DNA of 64,000 bases from Thozetella sp. PMI_491 (taxonomy: Eukaryota; Ascomycota; Sordariomycetes; Chaetosphaeriales; Chaetosphaeriaceae): NCBI GenBank assembly GCA_021432635.1, contig MU270053.1:465743-529742 (forward strand), given 5' to 3'. Positions 223 to 46,437 of the stretch are shown one piece after another; the stretch's first letter is position 1, and each line of letters begins with the position of its first letter. Made by a program: the position numbers and the translations under genes. Under the pieces are notes generated by a model. It saw nothing but the letters and a program-made list of their open reading frames with translations. It did no database searches and was not told the origin of the DNA.

Positions 223-925
223 GGTGTGGAATGCCGTCGTGGCAGGGGAAGGGTAGGGGATGTGGAACGGGGCCCGCGTTGAGATCCGCGAACGCGAGAA
301 GTGTTGGGACTGGAATTTTTAATAGCGCCAGGGAGCCGCGCCGGCGAAACGGTGTGCCAAAAATGTCGCGGTCGGCCGCAGCACGGAGAAAGGAACGGGG
401 AGCGGCTTGTCTTGAGTGGAGGGGCACATTTTGTGCCATACCACTCCGCCTTCCTCTTTAGGATTGATAAGATTCGATAAACCCTGATAACAGGGTTGAT
501 AAAGGCTTGATCCAGGGGTGGAGGAGCATTTGTTTAGTGGCCGCTAAGGGGTCTGTTGACGAAGCGCTTCCAAGTTTGTGCAGCCAGCCGAACTGACAAA
601 CTGGACAAGGGCCAGCCATCTTCCCATATGGAGGATCCAGTTGGGGTCATTGGAGATCGCAGTGATATCTGGCCGGATGGACGTCAATCGGCGATAAACA
701 GCCGGCCAAGGTAGGTTGTTGCCATGATATTGCCATCGTGACGTCATTGGGTGGGTGGGATAACGGCCGTCCATATCAGGACTGTAAAACAACAAACGTC
801 GCTATGCCCCTGAATCGCGGGTCGCAACGACTGCCTATTTCTGAGCGTCAGTAACAATCGCACCGGCCGTTAGCTCTGCGTGCCAGTCTATTTGCGCGCT
901 ATTGTTCTTTTTGGGATTTAACACT
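223..925. other. Intergenic, divergent promoter region
   Basis: This 0.7 kb lies between the divergent ZNG1-like gene and the small orphan gene. Short open frames on both strands show no recognisable protein features. No RNA gene or repeat was seen. Confidence 0.5.
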
Positions 926-1349
926 ATGTCGTCCTCTTCGCCTCTTTCTTCAGAAGAGACGCTCCGAGACAGCCTCGCCAGAACAGAGGCGGCTGCTGCA
1001 CCGGTGGACTATAAAGCAATGCTTGACGAAGCAGCAGAGAAGGACAAAATGAAAGACACGCCGAAACCGCCACAAGATTCGTCGGGGGCGTCGCCCATTG
1101 TTGAGACCGGTAAGTCGAGCTGGAGCACGCAAAGATGTCCGGCAGACGACTTATACAGCCACAGTATCACGATATGTCCAGACCCTTGGCAAGATCCTGG
1201 GGCAAACGGAACCTGAGAAGGCGGCCGTCCCAACTGCGAGTGGCCCAGCCCCGGGACCTCCACACCGTCCGGATCACGACCCCCAAATCGAAGAGTTCGT
1301 TCGCGATCAGCACCGCAGCAGCCCAGTACGAGTGGCGACGAGCGAGTAA
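926..1349 (+). CDS. Small hypothetical protein, two exons
   Basis: Exons 926-1109 and 1165-1349 join in phase across an intron with a GTAAGT donor and give 122 residues. An acceptor six bases earlier (exon 2 from 1159) is also in frame and would add two residues. The protein is hydrophilic. It has a Ser-rich start, an acidic/basic helical stretch (about residues 25-45), a short region around SRYVQTLGKILGQ, a Pro-rich linker, and an ending around PDHDPQIEEFVRDQHRSS. There is no signal peptide or membrane segment. I believe related short proteins occur in other ascomycetes, but I cannot name a function. The two blocks of non-repetitive sequence and the clean intron support a real gene. Confidence 0.6.
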
Positions 1350-1703
1350 GGGCCACTGGGAACTGGAAGAGCAAGAATAGAACATATTTCAGGGCAAAAC
1401 AGGCGTCCAAGATTTATTTGGCGCGTTCCTAAACTAAATTACATGCCGCAACTCCGTTTCATATGTCAACCCCTGCTTTTGCGATCTCTTGGAGCCCGAG
1501 GGCCCCAACGAAGACAGACAGCGACCTGGGCGGCGAACATGATCCCAAATTCTATTACTCAAGCAGGCGGAAGAATCAGACCTTCATAAGCCCTCAAAGT
1601 GACATGATGCGTGAAGAATATCCCGTGAAGAATAACAGCCTGCGTCGCATAATCCATTATACCCCCGTTACGTCGTGAATGAATAGGCAGCAAGAGACGC
1701 AAC
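1350..1703. other. Intergenic, between convergent genes
   Basis: About 350 bp shared as 3' flank by the orphan gene and the GPI protein gene. Nothing distinctive was seen. Confidence 0.5.
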
Positions 1704-2393
1704 TTATGCCAAGAGGAACTGGCCGGCAGCGAGGGCGATGGCGCCGGCGACAAGAATGCTCTTCTTGAGCGATGCGGGTGCGCCGGCGGTAACGTACGTC
1801 TTGAGAGGGCCGTTGCCGGGAGTGCCGGGAGGAGAGGGAGGCATGCCGCCCATGCCGCCCATGCCACCAGTAGGAGCAGCAACCCCAGGGACACCACCAC
1901 CAGGGCAGTTCGGGCCGCCTGGGCAGCCAGCGGGCATAGCACCACCACCACCCAGGGGAACGACAGGGCCGGTAGGGCGGGCGGCGAGGTCGGGGTGAAC
2001 CGTGGCAGTAACACCGTTGTTTCCGAGGACCTTGATGTTGGTATCCGTGGCGAGGGCGTTGGGGCAGGTGATGACTTGCTGCTTGTTCTGGCAGGCATCG
2101 CAAGCCACGGTCGACACAACGAAGTTGGAAGGGCAGGCGGGCGTCGTCCAATCGGCAGGGTTACCAGTGCAGACCTCAGCAACGGTGTAAGTGGCAAGCC
2201 ATGATGACGTGGGGCACGCGGCCGGGAGAGTGACGCAGTAGGTCTTGGTAAAGACGCTGGTCACGGTGTTGGTCACGGTCGCCGGGGTGGCGCAGACCAG
2301 GAAGCTGGAGGAGGTGAGGGCCGGAGCGGAGCTATTCCGAGAGCACGGTTAGGCACTGTTGCACATGCATTGGAAGAGGGCATCTCACCTCAT
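1704..2393 (-). CDS. Probable GPI-anchored cell-surface protein, Cys-module plus Gly/Pro/Met repeats
   Basis: The main exon is 1704-2331. It opens only through an upstream intron (2332-2388, donor GTGAGA, CCTAAC branch site) preceded by a 5-base coding exon, ATGAG (2389-2393), giving 210 residues. The N-terminal half has evenly spaced cysteines (YCVTLPAACP, EVCTGN, CDACQNKQQVITCP), resembling modules of fungal adhesins of the Mad1 kind. Next come GGGGAMPAG and GGMGGMGGM low-complexity repeats. The last about 20 residues are hydrophobic (SILVAGAIALAAGQFLLA), as in a GPI-attachment signal. A clear signal peptide is missing in this model, so an extra upstream exon is possible. A later in-frame acceptor in exon 2 would shorten the N terminus. 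A TATA-like TTATATAG lies near 2623-2630. Confidence 0.6.
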
Positions 2394-3076
2394 TTTGGAG
2401 GATGTGGTGTTGAGAATTAAATTTTAAAGATCAAAAAAGGTGCTTTTTCAAACTGGAGGCGACGCGAGCGCAACTTTGAGAAAAGGAGCGACTTGAAGAT
2501 GGCTGAAGAATGCTGTGGGAAACGAGTGTAGGGGTACCTTTAAACGAAGGACTGGCAACTTAACACGCCTGAGTGGATGAGGAAGGAAGGAAGACTGATG
2601 GCAACTAGACATCGTCGAGCTTCTATATAACGAACACAGACACGCAGCGGAGCTTCGTGGCTGATTCCAGCGGGCCAAATTAGATCGCGAAAATGCCTCT
2701 TCGGCCACATTCCTCAGGGCTGAATCTACATGCACATGTTGTGGTGGCATAGGCCTGCGATGGGCATCCGTGGCTGGGAGCAGGATGCCAGTCGGTGAGA
2801 CACGCAAACATCACCAGCGCTTGCCGGGGTCCGTCCCACACCAGGGACAGGAATTCAGTCCTGCTCCCCAACCCAGCAACGGAAGCGACCTACGGGCAGA
2901 AGGGAAACGGCCGAGTTGGGAGCATCCAATGGCAGGTTTCAGCCGTCGTGAGGCGCGCAGGCACGTCGCCTGCGGGCAGCCGTACGGACTTGGACGCACA
3001 CATTCAGGGCGGATCTTAAGCCACGCGAGGACGTGGAACCATTTGGGAACGGAGCCTTTGCCGGTAATGGACCACA

Positions 3077-3091
3077 CCCCCCCCCCCCCCC
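3077..3091. repeat. Poly-C tract (15)
   Basis: Fifteen consecutive C on the + strand in the FAM32A/GPI gene intergenic region; a likely length-variable site. Confidence 0.9.
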
Positions 3092-3552
3092 ATTGACGCG
3101 CGGATGAACGCACGTCGAGCACAAAGGGCGAGCTTCTTCTTTTTTTTACGGGTTACGAACGGGCCGAGCGGCACGCGCGTCGCGCAAGAATATTGATGCG
3201 GCTGCCAGCAGCGCAAGACGGATCCGCATCACGGCCAAGGGCTGGCCATGGATGGGATCCGGATGTCTCCATTCTATCAGCATCTCGATCCCACATATAT
3301 TCAAGAACCGAGACTTCCTATCCTGGATTTCAATCTGCAGAGAAAACCCTCAATTGAGGATGGCAACTCGGCACCGTGGGAATCTGGGTGACGGTCGTGG
3401 CGACTCTGGGTAAACTTTTTGATCTGAAGAAAAAAAGAAGAAAAGAGATTTCAAATTCCGGCCGCTTCGCGTCGAGGTTATGCAGGCCTGCCGGGAGCGG
3501 TGAGCCATAATTCTGCCCGCGCTAATCCGCTTTCTACCACTGCCACGACCTT

Positions 3553-5972: not shown

Positions 5973-6840
5973 CTTCCTGGAATTCTGAGGTCGCTGGTCT
6001 TCGATGCCTGTGCTTTGCGGGAGAGACTTGATACCGGCCTTCTCAGCTGCCTCGAGAAGGGGGGCATCGATCCCAGACCGTGGGGATGCCATAGCTATGA
6101 GTGCTTCTATTCGATTGCCCAGCGGCTCCGTCCGCAGCCAAAGTGTGAAGCTAGCAGAGCCTTGCAGGCCGACGACGAAATGGGGTCCCTTGGCGACACT
6201 GGTGGGACAGCCCGACGAAGACCAGATACTGGGTCCGACACGGCCCCAAGAAGGATCTAGCAGGACAAGGTCAGCTTAGTGCCTCGCTATGCATGCCGAT
6301 GGGTGGTCTGGCAGATGGGTGATTCGGCCGTCGGAGAGCGGGGGAGGCGACAAGTTGTCGCACTTATGCTGCCGTACGTGGTGGAAGCAAGCCGCGAAAC
6401 CTTCAGCTGAGGCAGGTTGCCCCACCAATGCGAAGAGGTGAGGTGCTAGACAGGCTGGTGCGGGAGACACCTCCACGGACGAGAACATACAGATGGGGCA
6501 GCAACACGAGAGTTTCCTCTTTGTGAACCGGCAATGGCGCCGGTAGCCAGGCCGCCAGAAGTTTTCCAGGCGGCGGGGTTTGAGCCAAAGGGGAGGTATT
6601 GTGAAAAGGGGGGGGCAAAGAGCTAACGCAAGCTTTCGTGTAGACCAACCTACCTTTGTGCACTTATCGACCCGGGGGCTGACTCGACAAGTGGTGGTTC
6701 TGCTTCCACCGGTTCCCTTCCCCGAATTGCGTGTTAAAACGAAAGAGGGAGAAAGCTAGCGGTCTCGACCGAGCTTTTTTGCAAGGTCCCCCTCCGGTAC
6801 GTGTTTCGCCGTGCGCCCGAGATGGTGGCCTCGATGGTGG
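5973..6840. other. Intergenic, left flank of the transposon pair
   Basis: Upstream region of the Ser/Thr-rich GPI gene, ending at the TA next to the left terminal repeat. GC-rich and RIP-free. No gene recognised. Confidence 0.5.
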
Positions 6841-9800
6841 TAACTCCTTGGGCCCGACATATGGCCCGGGAAGTGGGTCACCAATCAGAGCTTGGCTTGG
6901 CATGTTGAGGTACCTCGAGTGACCTGCAATTTCTCATACTAAAAACGGGTAAGCGAGCATCCCTGGCCAAGGGGGCTTGGTCAGTCAGCTGGAAAGCAAG
7001 TGATTAATTTACTTAAAAACACTACTAAAGGCAAAACGAATGGCTGCTGGCAGCTGTATTATATAGTATAAGGCTGGCTGGCTAGCTGGTGCCAGCGTAT
7101 AAAATAGGGGCCTTTGGGGCATAGTAGCGTATCACAGCTAGTATAACTCTAACGCGTCTTCTTATGAGGGGCTAGCTTATACCTATCTAGCTGGTCTGGA
7201 TCTAGCTAGTGGATCTGTATAGCAGGCGAGCAGCTAGTATAGCGTTTAGCGTATGGCTAGTCTTAATGGGCTAGTTAATAGTTGTATGGTCGTGGGTTGG
7301 TGGGAGATTAGGTGGGTTAAGTATTTACTAGCATGTGGGATCCCTGGCTGGTTAAGGGCTGGCTTTGTCTGGGTGGCGATTTCTTATGTGGGTATCGACT
7401 AGAAACGCTATATTTTTTCGTGAGCTTAGTATAAATCTGGTGCTAGAACTAGCTCTAGCTATGGCTAGTGACGTGGTTTTTACTTAGTTGTGTATGGAGA
7501 GGTTAAGATTCTTTCTAGAGGATAAAGGAGTTAATAAGAATAATATCTACTAGTATAATTTATTAGTAAACTAGTTTATATAACTAGACTAGGGGCTGTA
7601 TAATATTAAGGAAGTAATTATATATTATTACTTAGTATACTTTATAGTAGATATAGTGGTAAAGACTATAATCAGTATGTAGTTAATCTACCTAATCTAC
7701 CTTATTTATATAGTGATTATACTAATCTATAATCTAAGGTATAGGTAAAACTACTATAGGCTAGCTAGCAAATATAGCTAGTTATATATAATCTTTAGCT
7801 AGCTTATGAGTTACCTTTCTAAGGTACTTTTAGATTTGATATACCTAGGTATTAATACTATTAAAGCTAGTTGTTAGTATTAATATTATTGTATTATCTT
7901 TTTATAGGATCTATATAACCTGCTATATTAAATTAACTATAAAATAATACTGGTATAATCTAGAGGTAATAGCTTAATAACTAGCTAGATAGCTTACCTT
8001 TTTATCGCTGGTTAGCTAGTAGAAAAGGGTCCTTTAAATAAGCTTTTTACCCTTTTTTTTAAGGGCTATAATCACTAGATTAATCTCCTTTATTTTTAGC
8101 TAAGATTTTCTGTTTTTAGTCCTTATAATAATCTAGCCTATATATTAAAAAAGTTAAAAGAGTTATATAGAGTTAAAGTAATTATCTATAAAGAGATAGT
8201 AAGGTATATTAGTAGCTAGTAGTTAGCTTATTAAATAAATTATAAGCGACTAAGTCTTACTAAAATCCTTACTATATAGTTATAAATCCTTATTAATAAA
8301 CTATTTTACCAGCTAGATTAATAGGTAAAATACTTCTTAACTAGTCTAAAAGTATTATACTAGTATATAGCTAGCTTTAGCTAATACTTAGATCTTAAGC
8401 CTTTATTTAATTAGCTTTTCTTTTATAAAATACTTTTTACTTATATAGCTAGTATATCTAACTATAGCTTTATTAATTACTACTTAAAAACCAGCTATAA
8501 AAAATTAGCAGTAGACTAATTATAAGTAGTAGCTAAGATAATCTAGTTAATACTAAAGTATTAAAAATAAGCTAGGGGTTAGTAAAAATAGATTAAATAT
8601 AGTCAGCTAATAATATAAAAAGAAAAAATAATCCCTAGTTATCTAGTGTTAAGCTTTATATATTAAGCTATAAAAAAAGTCTATATTCTAATAAGAATTA
8701 AACTATATAGCTTAATAAATATTAAAATATACTAGTAAAATAAGAAAGGTATAAAGCTTATTAGTTATAATAGAAAAGCTTATTACTAGTATAAAAGGGT
8801 TAAAACTAGGGTCTATTAAGCGCCCTAGACTAAAATAATAGTAGAAAATACATTAAATAGTCTAGCTAGCCTACTAAGCTATTAGCTAGTATAGAAAAAA
8901 GTAAAGAAAGATATTTATTAGGTTAGTTATATAATTAACATAAATTATAAGGAGAAAATCTAGCCCCTTAAGCTTTTTAAATATATTAAGCTTTATTATA
9001 ACTTTAGAATTATAATATACCTTTTAACTATAGATTTATACTATTAATATAAGGTACTTACTAGGTCTATACTATTTTAAAGCTTAAAAGGTATTATTAA
9101 TTAGTAAGATAGGAGGGTTGGCTAGGGGGAGAGGTTTAAGCTTATAGTTAATCTCTAGCTAGCTTAAGGGTAGTAAAAATAGCTTGAGCTTATAGTTACT
9201 CTTAGGGTTAGATTCTTATTTTAAAAATAAGTTAGTGGTTAATCTATAGTAAATAAAGCTAGCTTACTAGACTAGTATTAGAGGGCTTAATAACTGGCTT
9301 ATAAGAAGGTTTTATAAGCTAGGGCAGTTACTGTTTAACAGCCTTATAGAGAAGTATAAGGAGTTGTTTAGCCTTAGCTAACTATAATAATTTACTATAG
9401 ATATTAGGCTAGTTAGTTAACTAGCCCTTAAAGGGGGGTTTATAGTGTTTTAAGGTCCATAGCTATTAAATTAAATTAGCTAAAAGTAAAGCTAGTATAG
9501 CTTAACAGTTATAAGTAGTTGGTAGAGCTAGTCAGCTAGGGGCTATTTTAAGGGCTTAAAACGTCGATTTTATAGTTGTTTTTATAGTTAAAAAAAGTAA
9601 AAATTACTAGCTGGCTAGATCGTATAGATCTAGTTAACTAGATTTTATAGCTAAAAAGTATTTAAATACTGGTTAAGGGTAAAAAATTATATGTAAAAAG
9701 TAATGGTTTTATTGATTTAAAAGGGCTAGAAAGCATTAGATTAATAGGTAAAATCAGCTATCCACTAGTAACCCCACCGAAACTGTACGCCTTATTTTTA

Positions 9801-10081
9801 CAGCGATTTTTTTTTTAAAAAAATCGTAAAAAAATCACGAAAAAAGCTGGATCACTTAAATCAATAAGCTTATAAGGGTATTATGAGATATATATAAAGA
9901 TTACATTAAATCCCATCAAGAGGGTTAGAATAACTGTAAAACTTAGTGATTTTAAGGTCTTAGAATAGTAAAAGTAGTGGTTTAATAACCCTATCTATAA
10001 CTACCCTAAAATAAGTGATGTACTCGATTATACTAGTGGGGCGGTCCACTTCCCAGGCTATATGTCGGGCCCAAGGAGTTA
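6841..10081. mobile_element. RIP-mutated TIR DNA transposon, copy 1 (left arm)
   Basis: A 3,237-bp element (6843-10079) bounded by TA on each side. Its 33-bp terminal inverted repeats lie at 6844-6876 (starting CTCCTTGGGCCCGACATATG) and 10046-10078; the inner one differs only by transitions. The interior is extremely rich in TA and CTAG steps and has no open frame over 60 codons, as expected after C-to-T RIP mutation. The TA target suggests a cut-and-paste element of the Tc1/mariner kind, but no transposase motif survives and the family is unassigned. The outermost few hundred bases keep normal GC. It is the reverse complement of copy 2. Confidence 0.82.
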
Positions 10082-10439
10082 GGCAAAGCAAGCCAAGTGA
10101 GCCACCATAGTGGCAGGCCACAGCACATCCATCCCCTGCCGCCCATTGGGAGCACTAGTCGATCCCTGCTGCTTCACTCGTCATGGACCCTCTCTGGCGG
10201 GCGCCCTGCTTCGCGCTTGCCCGGAGAGCCATGCAGAGCTGAAGGGAAAGGGCGAGAGAGCTCCGCGGCAAGCCTCCCTCTCCACCACCGACCGCCTACC
10301 GCTGCCTGGGCCCTGCACCTGCCCCTCCACCACCACAGGGATGCAGCCATGGACACCGCAGCCCGGGGCAGGGACGCTGGGGAGCTTATATGCACAATTG
10401 CCGCCCTTGCCCAACTAGCACCTGTATCTCGCTTGTTCT
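10082..10439. other. GC-rich spacer between the two transposon arms
   Basis: A 358-bp island with normal GC between two AT-rich arms. Frames of 70-117 codons cross it on both strands, but their translations are low in complexity and run into the terminal repeats, so I do not call a gene. It is probably host target sequence caught between two insertions. Confidence 0.6.
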
Positions 10440-13400
10440 TACCTCTTTAGGCTTGATATATAGCCTGGGAAGTGGACCACCCCACTAGTATAATCGAGTA
10501 TATCACTTATTTTAGGGTGGTTATAGACAGGGTTATTAAACCACTACTTTTACTATTTTAAGACCTTAAAATCACTAAGTTTTACAGCTATTCTAACCCT
10601 TTCGATAGGATTTAACATAATCTTTATATGTATCTTATAATACCCTTATAGGCTTATTAATTTAAGTGATCCAGCTTTTTTTATGATTTTTTTATGATTT
10701 TTTTAAAAAAAAAATCGCTGTAAAAGTAGGGTGTATAGTCTCGATAGGGCTATTAGTAAATAATTAATTTTACCTACTGATCTAATACTTTCTAGCCCTT
10801 TTAAATTAATAAAACTACTACTTTTTACATACGATTTTTTACCCTTAACTAGTGTTTAAATACTTTCCAGTTATAAAATCCAGTCAACTAGATCTATATA
10901 ATCCAGCCAGCCAGCGATTTTTACTCTTTTCAACTATAAAAACAACTATAAAATCAACGTTTTAAGCCCTTAAAATAGCCCCTAGCTAACCAACTCTACT
11001 AATTACTTATAGCTACTAAGCTATACTAGCTTTACTTTTAGCTAACTTAATTTAATAGTTATAAACCCTAAAATACTATAAACCCCTCTTTAAGGATTAA
11101 TCAACTAGCCAGTCTAATATCTATAATAAACTATTATAGTTAGCTAAGGTTAAACAACCCCTTATACCTTTTTATAAGGCTATTAAATAGTAACTACCCT
11201 AGCTTATAAAACCTCTTTATAAGCTAGCTATTAAGCCCTTTAATACTAGTTTAACAAGCTAGCTTTATTTGCTATAGATTAACTACTAACCTATTTTTAA
11301 AGTAGGAATCTAACCCTAAGAGTAACTATAAGCTTAAGTTATTTCTACTACCCTTAAGCTAGCTAGAGATTAACTATAAGCTTAAGCCTCCCCCCCTAGC
11401 CAACCCTCCTATCTTACTAATTAATAATATTTTCTAGGCTTTAAAATAATATAGACCTAGTAAATACCTTATATTAATAGTATAAATCTATAGTTAAAAG
11501 GTATATTATAACCCTAAAGCTATAGTAAAGCTTAGTATATTTAAAAAGCTTAAGGGGCTAGATTTCCTCTCTATAATCTACGTTAACTATATAGCTAGCT
11601 TAATAGATATCTTCCTTTACTTCTTTTTATATCAGCTAGTAGCTTAATAGGCTAGCTGGACTACTTAACGCGTTTTCTACTGTTATTTTAGTTTAAGGCG
11701 CCTAATAGACCTTAGTTTTAACCCTTTTATACTAGTAATAAGCTTTTCTACTATAACTGATAAGTTTTATATCTTTTTTACTTTACTAATATATTTTAGT
11801 ATTTATTAAGCTATATAGTTTAATTCTTATTAAAATATAGACTTTTTTTATAGCTTAGTATATAAAGCTTAATACTAGATAACTAAGGATTGTTTTTTCT
11901 TTTTATATTATTAGCTGACTATATTTAACCTACTTTTACTAACCCCTAGCCTATTTTTAATACTTTAGTACTGACTAGACTATCTTAGCTACTACTTATA
12001 ATTAGTCTACTACTAGCTTTTTACAGCTGGTTTTTAAGTAGTAATTAATAAAGCTATAGTTAGATATATTAGCTATATAAGTAAAAAGTATTTTATAAAA
12101 AAAAAGCTAATTAAATAAGGGCTTAAGATCTAAGTATTAGTTAAAGCTAGTTATATACTAGTATAATACTTTTAGATTAGTTAAGAAGTATTTTATCTAT
12201 TAATCTAGCTAGTAAAACAGCTTATTAATAAGGATTTATAACTGTATAATAAGGATCTTAGTAAGACTTAGTTATTTATAATTTATTTAATAAGCTAATT
12301 GTTAGCTATTAATATACCTTATTATCTCTTTATAAATAATTACTTTAACTTTATATAGCTCTTTTAACTTCTTTAGTATATAGGCTAGATTATTATAAGG
12401 ACTAAAAGTAGAAAATCTTAGCTAAAAGTAAAGGGGATTAATTTAGTAATTATAGCCCTTAAAAAAAAGGGTAAAAAGCTTATTTAGAGGATCCTTCTCT
12501 GCTAGTTAATTAGTAATAAAAAGGTAAGCTATCTAGCTAGTTATTAAGCTATTACCTTTAGACTATACTAGTATTGTTTTATAGCTAATTTAATATAGTA
12601 GGTTATATAGATCCTATAAAAAGACAATATAATAATACTAATACTAATAACTAGCTTTAATAGTATTAATACCTAGGTATATTAAATCTAAAAGTACCCT
12701 AGAAAAGTAACTTATAAGCCAGCTAGAGATTATATATAGCTAGCTATATTTACTAGCTAGCCTATAGTAGTTTTACCTATACCTTAGATTATAGATTAGT
12801 ATAACTACTATATAAATAAGGTAGATTAGGTAGATTAACTATATACTAATTATAGTCTTTATCACTATATCTACTGTAGAGTATACTAAGTAATAATATA
12901 CGATTACTTCCTTAGTATTATATAGCCCCTAGTCTAGCTATATAGACTAGTTTACTAATAAATTATACTAGTAGATATTATTCTTATTAACTCCTTCATC
13001 CTCTAAAAAGAATCTCAACCTCTTTATATACAACTAAGTAAAAACTACGTCACTAGCTATAGCTAGAGCTAGTTCCAGCACCAGATTTATACCAAGCTCA
13101 TAAAAAAATATAGCGTTTCTAGTCAATACCCACATAAGAAATCGCCACCCAGACAAAGCTAGCCCTTAACCAGCCAGGGATCCCATATACTAGTAAATAC
13201 TTAACCCACCTAATCTCCTACCAACCTACGACCACACAACCATCAACTAGCCCATCAAGACTAGCCATATATTAAACGCTATGCTAGCTGCTCGCCTGCT
13301 ATACAGATCCACTAGCTAGATCCAGACCAGCTAGATAGGTATAAGCTAGCCCCTCACAAAAAGACGCGTTAGAGCTATACTAGCTGTGATACACTACTAT

Positions 13401-13680
13401 ACCCCAAAGGCCCCTATTTTATACGCTGGCACCAGCTAGCCAGCCAGCCTTATACTATATAATACAGCTGCCAGCAGCCATTCGTTTTGCCTTTAGTAGT
13501 GTTTTTAAGTAAATTAATCACTTGCTTTCCAGCTGACTAACCAAGCCCCCTTGGCCAGGGATGCTCGCTTACCCGTTTTTAGTATGAGAAATTGCAGGTC
13601 ACTCGAGGTACCTCAACATGCCAAGCCAAGCTCTGATTGGTGACCCACTTCCCGGGCCATATGTCGGGCCCAAGGAGCTA
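10440..13680. mobile_element. RIP-mutated TIR DNA transposon, copy 2 (right arm, inverted)
   Basis: Element 10442-13678, again 3,237 bp, flanked by TA (10440-10441 and 13679-13680). Its terminal repeats are at 10443-10475 and 13645-13677. The inner one reads CTCTTTAGGCTTGATATATA where the outer ones read CTCCTTGGGCCCGACATATG: nearly all differences are C-to-T or G-to-A. Reverse-complemented, the whole arm follows copy 1 without visible length change. No open frame remains. The equal length and transition-only differences in the parts I compared point to one ancestral element duplicated and then mutated independently in each copy. Confidence 0.82.
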
Positions 13681-27927: not shown

Positions 27928-29250
27928 ACAACGCCGCCTTGCGTGTCTCCTTTTTTATTGCGACTGACTCACTATGCGACTCGTAGAGCGCCTAGAGATT
28001 GAAAGAAGGGGAGGAAATTTTACTATGGGCAGGATTCATGGGTTTGGTGCCCAAGCATGGGAAGCTCACGTACTGATTTGGCAGAGCAGCGGGATATCAT
28101 TGTCTTTATTTGGCGTTGAAAGGAGGTGAGTGTGGGGAACGGGTGGAGGACTACATGAGGTCGGATCGCTGGTGGTTACATGACTCTATTCGGCAGCGGA
28201 ACAGCATTTCGGTAGGCTGAGTAGGTAAAAGCGACTTGGGTAACAAAAGGCTTTCCAAGTGCCGCATCGTGACGACGTTGAAACAGCCCTAGTCTTAGAT
28301 ATTAGAGACAAGTCTGGAGGTCTCGTGGGACGATTGGCTTTGTTTCCAGGATGTCGGGCTAGCGAGAGTGGAGACGACAAAACTAGTCGTTGGACCCAGC
28401 CGAACCCAGCCGGACATGCCCAAGAAGGCACTAGCAGGCTGCTAGCTCAACATGGTTTAAAAAAAAAAACGCAACAGGTGCGAGAACCGCAAAAGCATGT
28501 CTCGACAGCCGCAGCGGGAAGGAGAGCTTAAAGTCTTTTGGCTAGCTAGGTTCACGCCGCCATCGTACTCCGTACTCCGTAATGGTGGGTAGGCCAGCCT
28601 GGCCCCTACTCCGTAGGTAAACTAGAACCGTAGTAGTACAGTACCTAGTAGCCGCCTGGCTGGGTCCCCCGGCTGAGTGCCCATCTTGAATGCCTGGGTG
28701 CTCCACGTAAGACCCAATGGCTATTGAGGCCGCAGTCAATGATTTCAATGATTTCTTCAGCTGGCTGGGGGTGCGGACTTGGGTGCGTAGGTGGGGCAGT
28801 CTTTCCCGCCCGTAGGACTTGGTAAGCTCGGCCGGAATGCGCGGAGTACAACAAGTATCCGTAGGCCGTCAATTGTAATAGCTGCCTCTGTACCAGGGAA
28901 ATAAAAGGGGGCTGTGGGCTGTACTCATGTATTGCATGCATGACGATATTGCCCAAACGGTGTACTGGATGGGAGCAATGGCTGCTCAGCGCGCTTGACG
29001 AGGCGAGCCAAGAATAGCGATGCGGTGGTATTTGGGGATTGGGGACGAAATGGCCTTCATGCTGCTCTTTGAACGAGGGTGAGTCCGTGTCTCGCATGCC
29101 GAAGCGTACGCGTTCTTTACGATCAAAGATGCAGACGCCGTGTTCTGGCTGGCGGAGAGTTTCGGTGACCACCCCACCTTCCTTCTCCCCCCTTCTCCCC
29201 CCCTCCCCACCCCCCTCCACCCCTGTAAGCCCGCCCAGCACCCAGTCCCG
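27928..29250. other. Intergenic, 1.3 kb before the truncated MITE
   Basis: Downstream of ECM14. It has overlapping TACTCCGTA units (28566-28581, again about 28608) and a C-rich low-complexity tract at about 29168-29223. No gene recognised. Confidence 0.45.
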
Positions 29251-29649
29251 TAGTGGACAAAAAAAACGACCCTTAGCTAAGACCCCCCCAAATCATCACC
29301 ATAAAGGCCAAAAGACATCATTTCTCAGGATAAATATCAGCGCTGTAAAATAATATTAATAAGAAAAGAAAAACATAGGAATATATAAAATTAAGATATA
29401 AGTATCTCATAATTTTTTCAGATTTTACTTTAGAATTTTGTGAAAGAATTAACTAGGTTTAGAAGAGTGTAAGAGTAACATGCCGTTGTCATATAGATTT
29501 TAGTAAGAAATCCATCTAGTACTTTTACTCTTTCGTTTATCAATCTACCACTACACCATTTTAACTTAGAAATACAAAAAATTTAATGCAAATATATTTT
29601 AAGCATTTCTTATTTCTTTCTTATTTTTCTTTTATTTTTAATTAATAAA
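29251..29649. mobile_element. Truncated copy of the GTGGAC-type MITE
   Basis: 29249-29649 is identical, base for base, to 34299-34699. The left terminal repeat (from 29253) is whole, but the right one is missing. At 29650 the sequence turns into an A/T homopolymer pair and then TTTTGGTGA, which may be a remnant of the right end. It is AT-rich, non-coding, and in the same orientation as the complete copy 5,050 bp away. Confidence 0.85.
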
Positions 29650-33876: not shown

Positions 33877-34300
33877 TTTGGCTGTGTAGGTAAGAGGTTT
33901 CGCGAACGAGTGGGTCACGACCAAGTTGCTCGAGTTAGTCGTCTGCTTCGACGGTGCAGAGGAGAAGCTGGAGTGGAAGGGCCGAAAGGGACCGTTTCTG
34001 GTTCACTCAAGGGGAAGTTTTGCGCGGGGAGACGAAGGGAAGGAGCAAAGAAGCGAAAGAAACCAACGAGAGCAGCCGCCTGGGGGGGGACTTGGTTCAG
34101 CCCTTTCTTTATACATAAATTTGGGCGATATTATTTCTTCAGCACCGGAGACTTGCAGGGGTCCCTCAGCCACACGTCTCAGTCTGACTAGGCGCCCATC
34201 AGGGAAAAAGTCAGCCGCCGGTCCTTGGCCGAGCCAGTGTGGGACGAGAGGCACAGGCCCAATCGCAGGGCCTAACAGCGACAATGACTGGCTTGGCCCG
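33877..34300. other. PLAC8 promoter side, left of the MITE
   Basis: 424 bp between the PLAC8 start and the complete MITE. No clear promoter element recognised. Confidence 0.45.
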
Positions 34301-34786
34301 TAGTGGACAAAAAAAACGACCCTTAGCTAAGACCCCCCCAAATCATCACCATAAAGGCCAAAAGACATCATTTCTCAGGATAAATATCAGCGCTGTAAAA
34401 TAATATTAATAAGAAAAGAAAAACATAGGAATATATAAAATTAAGATATAAGTATCTCATAATTTTTTCAGATTTTACTTTAGAATTTTGTGAAAGAATT
34501 AACTAGGTTTAGAAGAGTGTAAGAGTAACATGCCGTTGTCATATAGATTTTAGTAAGAAATCCATCTAGTACTTTTACTCTTTCGTTTATCAATCTACCA
34601 CTACACCATTTTAACTTAGAAATACAAAAAATTTAATGCAAATATATTTTAAGCATTTCTTATTTCTTTCTTATTTTTCTTTTATTTTTAATTAATAAAT
34701 TGTAGCTGATATTTATCCTTAGAGAAGGTGTCTTTTGGTGATGATTTGGGGGGGTCTTAGCTAAGGGTCGTTTTTTTTGTCCACTA
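34301..34786. mobile_element. Complete MITE with 48-bp perfect terminal inverted repeats
   Basis: A 482-bp AT-rich element (34303-34784) lies between two TA dinucleotides. Terminal repeats of 48 bp (34303-34350 and 34737-34784) are perfect reverse complements starting GTGGACAAAAAAAACGACCC. A looser second repeat zone with AAAAGACA and GGATAAATATCAGC continues inward on both sides. The interior has no open frame. TA target and short non-coding body suggest a Tc1/mariner- or pogo-driven MITE; the partner transposase is not in this window. It sits in the promoter shared by the PLAC8 and Sec7 genes. Confidence 0.88.
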
Positions 34787-35049
34787 CGTGCCAGTGTAGA
34801 AGGTCGAGCTCCACTTGCAGACTCGCCGCCCACTCAGCTTGGGTAATCGGCCTGGCGCCCAGAGCACCGCGTGGGCCCCCGTCGTTTGGACGTCGCTCTC
34901 CCTGATTCCTACAACCACCCTACGTCGACGTCAATGTCGATCGCAAAACCCTCTTCCCCCATCTCGATTCTTTGACGCCGTCCGACACCAAACCCTTTGG
35001 AACTCGGGACCTCGTCGATGCGATTCGTGTTCCGGGAAGATACGACGCG
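34787..35049. promoter_or_regulatory. 5' region of the Sec7 gene with upstream open frame
   Basis: The Sec7 reading frame stays open upstream from 35050 to 34906 and reads like coding sequence (for example KPFGTRDLVDAIRVPGRYDA). It has no ATG there, and no AG acceptor occurs between 34906 and 35027. A separate short frame starts with ATG at 34934 and stops at 34975. Confidence 0.5.
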
Positions 35050-42058: not shown

Positions 42059-43249
42059 TGCGTGGGATGCGGTCGAGGTCGTAGTGGGGGAAGGGGGGAG
42101 GGGAGGAGCTTCAGTTGCCCGTGGTCATCCTCTGGGTTCGCTTTGACCAGGTATGGCGATGCGCTGTCCGCTAGAATGCCCTCGACGCGACTAAACCGTA
42201 CCTGTGGCTCGGTGCTTGCGTGGAGACCGGCAAAGGCAGGTCGTCCTGGCTGTGTGCAGTGCAAAGATGTTGGACCGATGTTGGACCTGGCCTGATGAGG
42301 GGCTCTGGGGTAGCGGGGCAAATATTTTTTGTCGATTTCAAGTGTTTTGTGGGGTTTTCGAGGAACAGCATCTTCGAATCGAGTCAACCAGCACGTGCTG
42401 TCTCTACTTGACATGATCTCAAGAGCAAATCCGCGCTTCCGCCATGAAAGACTTACATATTCCTGGGAGAGGGGACAAACGGAGGGCTACTCGAGGCCGA
42501 CGGGGTTTCCATAGGAATTGGCAATTTCTATCGAGTGAGAGCCCCAGGTCGACTGGGTAGCATTACTCTCCTTTGGCTTGCAAGGCCCTCCCTCACCTTG
42601 AGCTCTGTATTCTAAGTACCTAAGTTGTCGACCTCGACCCAACGCTGCAACCTACCCTCCCCTCCAGAATCAATCTTTTGAGAGTGCGGGGGGTCTCTGC
42701 CGGCGTAGAGCTGCGATTTGCGATCGTACGTCCCTCGTTTGCTCGATTGGGCCGGCGGTCTTGTCGGATTGCGTCGTCGGGCATTTGAAATATCGGCGAG
42801 GTACAGTATAGGCGCTTGGCCTGCTCTAGGGTATATATATCCCTTCCACATGTCGAGGCGATCCGGATCAGGAGCGGCAATGGCACCCGACCTGTGTGCC
42901 CTGCGGAAAGAGCCAAGCGGGCAATGCCTCGCTCACTGGTACTTTCCCCACTACCTAATGTAGGTAGTAGGCGCTGTACAGTGTGCCATGTTAGTTAATA
43001 AATGTAGTTTAACCGAGGGGACGACACTGCGGTTCCAGGAGAGACGAACTCCGTAGCCTTTTATTACGGAAGCGGAATTCTGCCAGATGCCGGCCGAACC
43101 CCCCTCCCCATCTTTGGCAACGAGGGACAGGAAGAGGTGGGCAATGGCCCTCCTCGGCCTCGTTATTATAGGTGCTGCCTGACCCGGCAGTGCCTGGGGG
43201 TCCTCGCCTATTGTCTATCCAGCAAGGAGACTTCCCAAGCAAGAGATCC
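42059..43249. other. Intergenic, divergent promoters
   Basis: 1.2 kb between SRP72 and the GH115 gene. Contains a short dyad CCTAATG/TAGGTAG near 42953-42968. No gene recognised. Confidence 0.5.
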
Positions 43250-46200
43250 ATGGCGTTCCTTCGTTTCTTAAGTCTCAGCTTGGCTGCCCTCTCTCTGCAG
43301 CCCTTGGGCCAGGTCTCAGCCCAGGACTCAGGCATCTTCTCCTTCTCTGCCGACGGCCCCGGGCTGCAGCTTGGAGCTTCCGGCGTTGCCCCCGAGATCC
43401 GGGTGGATCCGAATGACCTTCCGGGGGTCCTCCGGGTCGCCGATGACCTGGCCACCGACTTCGGCCGTGTTCTAGGAACGAATGGCACGGTAGTCAAGGC
43501 AGACTGGTCTTCGACTAGTTCCACCAAGAGCAACAACCCCATAATCGTCATCGGCACCATCGGGCATTCCAGCCTCATCGATGGCCTGGTATCGGCCCGT
43601 AAAATCGACACCAGTTCAGTTGCGAACAAGTGGGAGACATTCTCGTACCAAGTGGTCACGGCACCATGGCCCAGCCAAGACGCTGCTTTCGTCATCGCAG
43701 GGTCCGACATGCAAGGCACGATATTCGGCGCCTATGACGTCTCTGAGCAGATTGGTGTGTCGCCCTGGCACTGGTGGGGAGATGTGCCGCCGACAAAGCG
43801 GGAGCACGTCTGGGTTCAAAGCAAATCCTACGTGGCCGGGCCGCCATCTGTCAAGTTCAGGGGTATCTTTCTGAACGACGAGTCGCCCGGGCTGACGGGG
43901 TGGGGCCATGGCAAGTACAAGGACAGCCAGTACGGAAGCCCCTTCATCACGGACTTCTACAAGAACGTCTTCGAGCTGATCCTACGGCTCAAAGGGAACT
44001 ATCTCTGGCCGGCCATGTGGTCTAGCATGTTCTATCTAGATGACCCCAAGAACGGACCCACGGCCACCGAGTACGGCGTCTATATGGGAACAAGCCATCA
44101 TGAGCCTATGGCGAGGGCAGACAAGGAGCAGAATCGCTTTCTCAAGGGTTCTTGGGACTGGGGTAGCAACAAGGCCGGGGTGCAGTCGTTCATGCAGGAA
44201 GGCGTGACAAGGTCTAAGAACTGGAGCACCATATACACCCTGGGGATGCGAGGATCGGGTGATGCCGCGTCCGCCACCCTGACATCCAAGGCACTGGAAG
44301 ATGTTATCCATTGGCAGCAATCGGTCTTGAAGAGCGTTATAGGCAAGCCATTGTCTGAAATACCCCAGGCCTGGGTGATGTACAAGGTATGACGGAAGCA
44401 CTGGTGCTCAATCGATGACTAATTTTCGGCTATAGGAAGTTCCGGGCTACTGGCAGAAGGGGATGGATGTCTCTGACGACGTAACTCTTCTTTGGAGTGA
44501 CGACAATCGAGGCAACATTCGCCGGGTTCCGATCGCGAATGAGACCGCCCGGGCGGGTGGCTCCGGGATCTACTATCACTTCGACTGCAAGTACTCTCCG
44601 TGTTCTACATCCCCCTGATAAGAGCTCCCAGGAGTAGGTGTATACACCTTTTGTTGAGATGCGACTAGATCTCCAAGGACTCTTGCAAAGGCTGATCAAC
44701 AGCTGACAAGCTCCTAGATGTTGGCGACCCGAGGAACTATAAGTGGATCAACACAATCCAGCTACAGAAGACTTGGGAGCAGATGACACTGGCACACGAC
44801 CGAGGGATCCGCAATATTTGGATTGCTAATGTGGGCGATCTGAAAGGTCTGGTACGTTGCCGCCCTTGCGTATGCGTTTATTGTGTTTGAGAAATTGTCT
44901 CGTTGAACTGAGTGTACTCTAGGAACTGCCGATTGCTCATTTTATGGCCCTGGCATGGGATCGTACGAGCTTCAACGACCCAGCAAGGACGACTCAGTGG
45001 CTCACTAAATGGAGCGGCCGACAGTTCGGAGATGCTGCTGCGGCAAACGTATCCTCGATCATGAACACCTACGGCCGGCTGATCTCGCGCATGAAGTACG
45101 AGGACTTGAGCCGAACGCCTTTCGCCTTCAACACTGTGAACTACGACGAGGCCGAAAACAACTTCCATGAGTGGGAGAACCTAGCCGCCAAAGCGCAGGC
45201 GACGTACGACAGCATCCCTAGCGCAGCGCAGAACGCCTTCTTCGCGATCGTTCTCCATCCGGTAGTAGCAGGCAAGGGCGTGTATGAGATATACACTAAG
45301 GCGGCACTGGGGCCTAAGTATGCGAATCAGCATCGGGCGAGCACCAACGACCTCGCCAAGGACGTGCAGACGGCGTTCGCCCAGGACAAAGACCTCACCA
45401 AGCGGTTCCATACCATCCTGAATGGAAAATGGAATCACATCATGGATCAGATTCATATTGGATACAATAACTGGCAAGATCCAGGCTCGGCGAGCCTGCC
45501 GAAGCTGACATACGCTTCTAGCAGCGGCAGCACCAGCAGCAGCGGGAAGGGAGCGCTCATGGGCCTAGCTGTTCAAGGGAGCAATAATGCATTCCCCTCA
45601 GCCGCTAGCCTCGCCCTACCAACTCTTACTCCTTACACGAGCGCCCCTCGGTGGCTAGACGTCTTCGCCCGGGATAACGGCACTTTCTCGTATCAAATCA
45701 CCTCGAGCGTTCCCTATGTGACTGTCACCAACGACAAGTCCACCGTGTCGTCACCGGGAACACCTGACGTGCGCACTGTCGTGTCAGTCGACTGGGATGC
45801 GGCCCCAGCTGGCTCAAGCATTGCGTCCCTCAGCATCAAGAGCTCTGACGGGACCACAGCTACGGTGACCGTGCCTCTAGACAAGACCCCCGTGCCGGTC
45901 GGCTTTAAGGGACACGTGGAATCGAGCGGGGTGGTGTCCATCGAGGCAGAACAGTTTGACACTTTGACCTCGGGCAAGGAGTATGTGGTGATTCCGTACT
46001 ACGGACGGACGCTGTCAGGCGTACGTCTTCCTCCCACCACCGCCTCGCAGGGCCCGGCCAAGGGGCCGGCACTGGTGTATCCCTTCTACACATTTTCTAG
46101 TGCCACAGCGGCCAGTGTGACTGTGTACCTCTCGCCGTCCGAGAATTCAAATCCAACATCGCCCAACCGCTACTCGTTCAGCGTCGATGGCGGAACCGTC

Positions 46201-46437
46201 ACGACAGTCCAGCCCGTCCCGCTGGGCGACGCCGGCAATGAACCCGCCGGCTGGTCCGACGCGGTCATCGTGAATGCATACGTCAAGAACAGCAAGATCG
46301 GGAGCCTCGCCGCTGGGAAGCATGAACTACGTTTTTACCTGCTAGAACCTACCATGGTAGTCACCAAGATAGTGATTGATGTGGGCGGCTTGCAGTCAAG
46401 CCTGATGGGGCCTCCCGAGAGCAAGAGAGTGTCGTGA
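43250..46437 (+). CDS. GH115 xylan alpha-1,2-glucuronidase, secreted
   Basis: Four exons (43250-44386, 44436-44586, 44718-44851, 44923-46437) give 978 residues. The start at 43250 gives a signal peptide (FLSLSLAALSLQPLGQVSA). Family 115 blocks appear in order: SPWHWWGDVPP, FRGIFLNDESPGLTGWG, LKGNYLWPAMW, MGTSHHEPMARA, VTLLWSDDNRGNIRR, GGSGIYYHFDY, VGDPRNYKWINT, IWIANVGDLKG and ELPIAHFMALAWD. GH115 enzymes remove 4-O-methyl-glucuronic acid from xylan, on internal and terminal xylose units. A C-terminal beta-rich domain (about 750-978) follows. Intron 2 has a GC donor (GCAAGT), chosen because it alone restores HFDYVGDP. The gene marks a plant-biomass-degrading lifestyle. Confidence 0.93.

What the first reader, a model, noticed from the sequence alone, without database searches (positions are those of the whole stretch)
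6841..13680. A 6.8 kb inverted pair of RIP-mutated transposons, each exactly 3,237 bp
Two TIR elements lie head-to-head around a 358-bp spacer. Both are bounded by TA, have the same 33-bp terminal repeats, and are equal in length. In the parts I compared they differ only by C/T and G/A transitions. Such a near-palindrome could fold into a cruciform and make double-stranded RNA, and it offers the duplicate that RIP needs. The element itself is not one I can name.
Basis: partly seen in the sequence, partly recalled or inferred. Interest (0 to 1): 0.72.

Follow-up and report, generated by a model that had tools for sequence, protein, structure and literature searches.

The report
Inverted pair of RIP-killed fungal transposons
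Two copies of one DNA transposon sit face to face in a fungal-type genome and both look disabled by the fungal defence that mutates duplicated DNA, a clean but ordinary example of that defence.

Summary
6843-10079 and the reverse complement of 10442-13678 are both 3237 nt and align without an indel; 277 of 278 differences are transitions. The one transversion is an outermost base, which varies in other copies too. The pattern is RIP (repeat-induced point mutation): discordance is 94 of 178 sites at CpA, 123 of 598 at CpT, 10 of 50 at CpG and 15 of 201 at CpC. From 649 to 2592 only 5 of 51 remaining CpA sites are intact in both arms. The genome has a RID-like methylase ORF, and 26 of 27 DDE_1 transposase matches carry stops. 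Both elements are bounded by TA; the 358-bp spacer is single-copy and unmutated. The genome search showed no other long copy, but short internally deleted, MITE-like ones. Best reading: two insertions 358 bp apart, probably a local hop, then RIP of both. The transposase superfamily could not be named. Cruciform and dsRNA ideas are untested. Ordinary in kind. Mildly interesting: the clean spacer, whereas N. crassa mutates such linkers, and the spared outer ends.

The parts
6843..10079 (+). Arm 1: full-length 3237-nt TIR element, RIP-mutated; no ORF of 60 aa or more lies wholly inside it
10442..13678 (-). Arm 2: second 3237-nt copy in inverted orientation, RIP-mutated; no ORF of 60 aa or more lies wholly inside it
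6841..6842 (.). TA at outer end of arm 1
   Evidence: (2-bp direct repeat)
10080..10081 (.). TA at inner end of arm 1
10440..10441 (.). TA at inner end of arm 2
13679..13680 (.). TA at outer end of arm 2
6843..6876 (+). Outer terminal inverted repeat of arm 1
   Evidence: I4
10046..10079 (-). Inner terminal inverted repeat of arm 1
   Evidence: I4
10442..10475 (+). Inner terminal repeat of arm 2, carrying transition changes
13645..13678 (-). Outer terminal repeat of arm 2, as arm 1 outer apart from the outermost base
   Evidence: (D4)
10082..10439 (.). 358-bp spacer, single-copy in the genome search, GC 0.645, no RIP sign
7518..9517 (+). RIP plateau of arm 1 (element 676-2675): TA/(TA+CA+TG) 0.84 or more in every bin
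11004..13003 (-). RIP plateau of arm 2 (element 676-2675): TA/(TA+CA+TG) 0.89 or more in every bin
6843..6992 (+). Outer 150 bp of arm 1, near background (TA share 0.14 and 0.21)
13529..13678 (-). Outer 150 bp of arm 2, near background (TA share 0.14 and 0.29)

Best explanation
A cut-and-paste transposon with TA target sites inserted twice within 358 bp in opposite orientation, most likely by a short local hop, and left two identical 3237-bp copies. RIP then saw the pair as duplicated DNA and converted C to T on both strands of both copies, nearly exhausting CpA sites in the middle 2 kb and also taking CpT sites. Both copies are dead. Shown: the structure, the transition-only divergence, CpA hit hardest and CpC least, the clean single-copy spacer, a RID-like gene. 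Inferred: a local hop rather than two chance insertions, that the arms served as each other's RIP partner, and that RIP followed rather than preceded the duplication.
For: 0 indels, 277 of 278 differences transitions. Discordant share CpA 94/178, CpT 123/598, CpG 10/50, CpC 15/201 (sites with equal neighbours in both arms); composite RIP index 1.31 and 1.39 in the arms, -0.49 in the rest of the window, -1.69 in the spacer. Arm-specific changes are balanced, 133 in arm 1 and 144 in arm 2. 46 of 51 remaining interior CpA sites are discordant, as expected when both arms are near saturation (p about 0.82 under independence). TA abuts 9 of the 10 element ends that could be read in the arms and four short copies. 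Flanks outside the TA share no extended homology (6 of 40 outer, 12 of 40 inner). A second copy landing by chance within 358 bp has odds of about 1e-5 in a 72.3-Mb genome. RID-like 831-aa ORF with a DNA_methylase domain.
Against: With L016 as reference the arms share more converted sites than independence within dinucleotide contexts predicts (58 observed, 37.2 expected, stratified odds ratio 10.9), which could mean that some RIP came before the arms separated. The old short copy L015 is almost as strongly associated with arm 1 (odds ratio 10.6, worked out by hand; 3.9 with arm 2; 11.9 for arm 1 with arm 2 on the same sites), so site preference or old substitutions may explain it. Arm-specific changes are not strand-clustered (same strand 140 of 276 neighbour pairs, shuffle mean 146.6), whereas single-cross RIP clusters in N. 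crassa are mostly strand-biased (PMC7296669, passage); several cycles would be needed. No transposase could be recognised, so that this is a transposon rests on its ends and its copies.
Confidence: 0.8

Rival explanations
1. Inverted segmental duplication (fold-back replication or repair) copied one element, rather than a second transposition.
For: The arms are the same length and free of indels; palindromes can arise this way (general knowledge).
Against: Homology stops at TA on all four ends, and outer and inner flanks share no extended sequence (6 of 40 and 12 of 40). A segmental event would have no reason to stop at the element ends.
Confidence: 0.08
2. The element was already heavily RIP-mutated when it was copied, moved in trans by an intact copy now lost, and the arms were RIPed a second time.
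For: 58 shared converted sites against 37.2 expected by context in the part that L016 covers.
Against: No intact long copy seen in the assembly (lower bounds only); the association of arm 1 with the old copy L015 is nearly as strong; near-saturation of CpA explains much of the sharing.
Confidence: 0.2
3. Assembly or library hairpin artefact.
For: Length-matched inverted arms are a known sign of read chimeras (general knowledge).
Against: Arms differ at 278 sites with a biological context bias, have distinct flanks and TA borders, and enclose a unique spacer. A hairpin chimera would be near-identical.
Confidence: 0.02
4. Plain AT-biased decay or methylcytosine deamination, not RIP.
For: CpG sites are also depleted, and CpT changes are the most numerous in absolute count.
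Against: CpA is hit hardest per site, no transversion or indel accompanies 276 internal transitions, and the spacer beside the arms is untouched.
Confidence: 0.03
5. The palindrome is kept because its read-through transcript forms a hairpin that feeds small-RNA silencing of the family.
For: 3.2-kb stem with 91% complementarity; 141 of 278 differences would be G.U pairs.
Against: No transcription or small-RNA data; I tested nothing that would show selection for it.
Confidence: 0.04

Closest known systems
RIP in Ascomycota (Neurospora crassa RID/DIM-2 system)
   Same: C to T on both strands of duplicated DNA, CpA preferred, RID-like and DIM-2-like methylase ORFs in the genome (the two names are my reading)
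   Different: The spacer between close repeats is clean here, whereas the linker of N. crassa repeat-linker-repeat constructs has a mutation rate that falls to nearly zero only without dim-2 (PMC11969663, passages)
CpA plus CpT signatures of Botrytis, Sclerotinia and Magnaporthe transposons (PMC4352252, passages)
   Same: CpA and CpT both hit, RID/Masc1-like gene present
Tc1/mariner-pogo (IS630) TIR elements of fungi
   Same: TA borders, short TIRs, MITE-like deletion derivatives
   Different: 3.2 kb is long for the group (recalled); no Pfam match in the arms and no robust similarity to the 27 DDE_1 and 8 DDE_3 loci of this genome
Fungal Mutator-like elements such as Hop (recalled)
   Same: Similar total length (recalled)
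   Different: 2-bp TA and not 9-bp duplications; no robust signal against the 12 of 40 MULE matches that were compared

Membership tests
RIP-mutated repeat | C:G to T:A transitions with few transversions or indels | tested here: met
   277 of 278 differences, no indel
RIP-mutated repeat | CpA (or CpT) context bias and raised RIP indices | tested here: met
RIP-mutated repeat | Confined to duplicated DNA | tested here: met
   Spacer single-copy and clean; flanks near background TA share, though 6593-6842 has a high composite index
RIP-mutated repeat | Depends on a RID-type methylase in the sexual phase | not testable with these tools
   A RID-like ORF is present; the name RID rests on recalled motifs and length
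TIR DNA transposon | Terminal inverted repeats and a target duplication | tested here: met
   34-nt TIR; TA at 9 of 10 readable ends
TIR DNA transposon | A transposase gene in the full-length copy | tested here: inconclusive
   0 Pfam families in 12 frames with X at stops
Tc1/mariner-pogo (IS630) | TA target duplication | tested here: met
   2-bp direct repeat for both arms
Tc1/mariner-pogo (IS630) | DDE_1 or DDE_3 type transposase | tested here: inconclusive
   RIP-tolerant comparison: best 120.3 against 107.0 reversed; above 20 codon shuffles for two DDE_1 loci, but level with reversed controls at stricter gap costs
Mutator-like (MULE) | About 9-bp target duplication | tested here: not met
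   Only a 2-bp direct repeat
PIF/Harbinger | 3-bp TWA target duplication | tested here: not met
   Direct repeat is 2 bp, not 3
PIF/Harbinger | DDE_Tnp_4 transposase | tested here: inconclusive
   No PF13359 match at E 0.001 in the genome, but heavily mutated copies could be missed
MITE derivatives of this element | Short copies sharing both ends, interior deleted | tested here: met
   L015 457 bp, L016 643 bp, L019 about 370 bp

The most novel reading that the evidence does not exclude
This is a natural inverted repeat-linker-repeat in which RIP stayed strictly inside the homology: the 358-bp linker shows no trace although both arms are nearly saturated and a DIM-2-like methylase gene is present, and the outer 150 to 650 bp of both arms were spared while the inner ends were hit almost to the tip. 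It would mean that in this fungus RIP of close inverted repeats spreads outward from the centre and that linker mutation is absent.
Probability: 0.15. Interest if true: 0.45.

Novelty: new member of a known kind. Interest (0 to 1): 0.25.

Why it matters
It is a clean natural pair for measuring RIP: two equal arms, no indels and a unique linker. It opens no large question unless the clean linker and spared outer ends prove general in this species, in which case they would bear on how RIP recognises and spreads from close inverted repeats.

Tried and rejected
Pfam on six frames of each arm with X at stops: 0 families at E up to 5. Family searches of the own genome for an intact relative: DDE_1 27 matches, DDE_3 8, DDE_Tnp_4 0, Plavaka 0 (nothing rang in its controls, so uninformative), MULE 40, hAT dimerisation 24; no listed match lies at the arms. 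Purine/pyrimidine alignment: too loose, scores like those of reversed controls. RIP-tolerant codon-to-protein comparison: arm 1 against 40 loci (27 DDE_1, 8 DDE_3 and, as unrelated loci, 5 methylase loci) reached 120.3 against 107.0 reversed; a methylase locus reached 114.1 against 107.7. Against 12 of 40 MULE loci it reached 131.8 against 88.3 (L076, but 84.1 with arm 2), 127.1 against 88.7 (L073) and 124.4 against 96.5 (L071). Known relatives scored 1710.6, 1455.8, 336.0 and 168.3 against reversed 62.7-108.1 (DDE_1 with DDE_1), and 3201.2, 279.6 and 126.7 against 67.6-89.5 (MULE with MULE), while DDE_1 or MULE against a DDE_3 locus stayed near control, so the test does not reach across superfamilies. 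These alignments are long and gap-rich, use both strands of one locus, and at stricter gap costs the 8 loci then tested fall to about reversed-control level (best 79.4 against 66.8). I count this as inconclusive. hAT loci could not be cut out and were not compared. Reading phase from purine periodicity: weak. Tracts of RIP: none by strand, marginal by arm (153 of 276 against 137.9, P 0.04). That 29247-29546 and 34297-34596 are LTRs was dropped: the stretch between matches ordinary host gene families. The TIR string was found only in two papers on human genes by title (listing).

Full report
What is there. The window lies at C39:465743-529742 of a 72.3-Mb assembly of 157 contigs. Its species is not given; I take it to be a filamentous fungus from the RIP pattern, the methylase genes and the host gene families. 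The two arms 6843-10079 (+) and 10442-13678 (-) are both 3237 nt and align end to end without a gap, 91.4% identical, with 277 transitions and one transversion. The transversion is the last base, beside TA. That outermost base also varies among the short copies, so the conserved end begins one base further in. Inside there are 276 transitions and no transversion in 3235 positions, 8.5%. No ORF of 60 aa or more lies wholly inside either arm.

RIP. Of sites where at least one arm keeps the C and the neighbour is the same in both, discordance is 94 of 178 at CpA, 123 of 598 at CpT, 10 of 50 at CpG and 15 of 201 at CpC. GC falls to 0.16-0.34 per 100 bp from 701 to 3100 of the element, against 0.57 in the rest of the window. 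In 649-2592 only 5 of 51 CpA sites that still hold a C are intact in both arms. Under independence that means about 82% of CpA sites converted in each arm, and about 106 of 157 in both. CpA and CpT signatures together are reported for ascomycetes that have a RID/Masc1 gene (PMC4352252, passages). This genome has an 831-aa ORF with a DNA_methylase domain and RID-like motifs, and another ORF with DNA_methylase and a sub-threshold BAH match that looks DIM-2-like; both names are my reading from recalled motifs. Stops lie inside 26 of 27 DDE_1 matches, 37 of 40 MULE matches, 20 of 24 hAT matches and 4 of 8 DDE_3 matches of the genome, so broken transposases are widespread but not universal.

Where RIP acted. 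TA/(TA+CA+TG) is 0.14-0.29 in the outer 150 bp of both arms, 0.35-0.75 from 151 to 675, 0.84 or more from 676 to 2675, 0.60-0.93 from 2676 to 3200, and 0.33-0.57 in the last 37 bp. The outer ends are therefore spared further in than the inner ends. There is no unmutated reference for positions 136-2695, so part of this profile could be original composition. Central regions being hit hardest is known from other repeats (PMC2621366, passage on rDNA). The spacer gave one match, itself, in the genome; its GC is 0.645 and its TA share 0.108, below that of 93.7% of 1130 same-size windows around. In N. crassa test constructs the linker is mutated, and this depends on DIM-2 (PMC11969663, passages). 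The clean spacer is a departure from that model, seen at one locus. The 250 bp left of the pair has a high composite index (1.02, reached by 1.1% of windows) but a near-ordinary TA share (0.26 against a mean of 0.206), so I do not read it as leakage.

Relatives. The own-genome search shows no other long copy (it reports lower bounds). Short copies exist: L015 (C8, 457 bp), L016 (C47, 643 bp, ends 1-135 plus 2696-3236), L019 (C31, about 370 bp), a partial one without terminal repeats (L017, C20) and a single end (L018, C20). Three of them differ from arm 1 by 7-11% transversions in the shared right part (L016 34 of 499, L015 26 of 348, L017 33 of 295), so they are far older than the split of the arms; L015 has itself lost C/G relative to L016. 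TA abuts 9 of the 10 ends that I could read; the exception is the right end of L016.

How it came about. All four ends stop at TA, both insertions have a 2-bp direct repeat, and no flank is duplicated. That favours two insertions over an inverted segmental copy. A second insertion within 358 bp by chance is unlikely (about 1e-5), so a local hop is the best guess. Whether some RIP came before the split is open: with L016 as reference 58 sites are converted in both arms, 21 in arm 1 only, 26 in arm 2 only and 104 in neither, with 28 further sites set aside; 37.2 shared would be expected within contexts. The old copy L015 shows nearly the same association with arm 1, so the excess need not mean common history. 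RIP is said to need duplicates longer than 400 bp and more than 80% alike (PMC3441728, passage), which only the two arms clearly offer each other here.

What it is called. No Pfam family was found in 12 frames. A RIP-tolerant comparison that recovers close and moderate relatives inside DDE_1 and inside MULE gives nothing robust for the arms: several loci beat 20 codon shuffles, but not reversed controls at stricter gap costs, and the test does not reach across superfamilies. hAT loci could not be compared. I leave the superfamily open; TA ends point to the Tc1/mariner-pogo side, protein evidence does not confirm it.

Literature. Six searches were run. I saw passages of PMC12543289, PMC3441728, PMC11969663, PMC7296669, PMC4858203, PMC4352252 and PMC2621366, and listings of the rest. 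Nothing that I saw describes this element; the search for a RIPed palindrome, inverted duplication or local hop listed 7 papers, none on that subject by title.

Verdict. A confirmed, clean and ordinary case of RIP on a transposon pair; new member of a known kind.

Noticed in passing
29247-29546 and 34297-34596, with inverted partial copies near 34705-34797: Identical 300-nt direct repeats 5,050 bp apart in GC-poor stretches; the DNA between matches ordinary host families (PLAC8, LYR, ribosomal L36), so not LTRs. In the own genome all 5 matches lie on C39, two of them at its very first bases (1-237 and 287-415), which suggests that the contig breaks in this repeat.
   Followed up: partly
L016:1653-1719: Just after the 643-bp deleted copy comes a second, partial left end of the same family (matches arm positions 17-83), as if two short copies were nested or adjacent.
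   Followed up: no
L066:469-2964: 831-aa ORF with a cytosine methylase domain and RID-like motifs; L067 holds a second, DIM-2-like one, and L068 a third, diverged methylase-like ORF.
   Followed up: partly
6593-6842: Composite RIP index 1.02, in the top 1.1% of 250-bp windows, but near-ordinary TA share.
   Followed up: partly
43172-46437: Two ORFs match the front and the C-terminal part of glycosyl hydrolase family 115, probably one intron-split gene.
   Followed up: no
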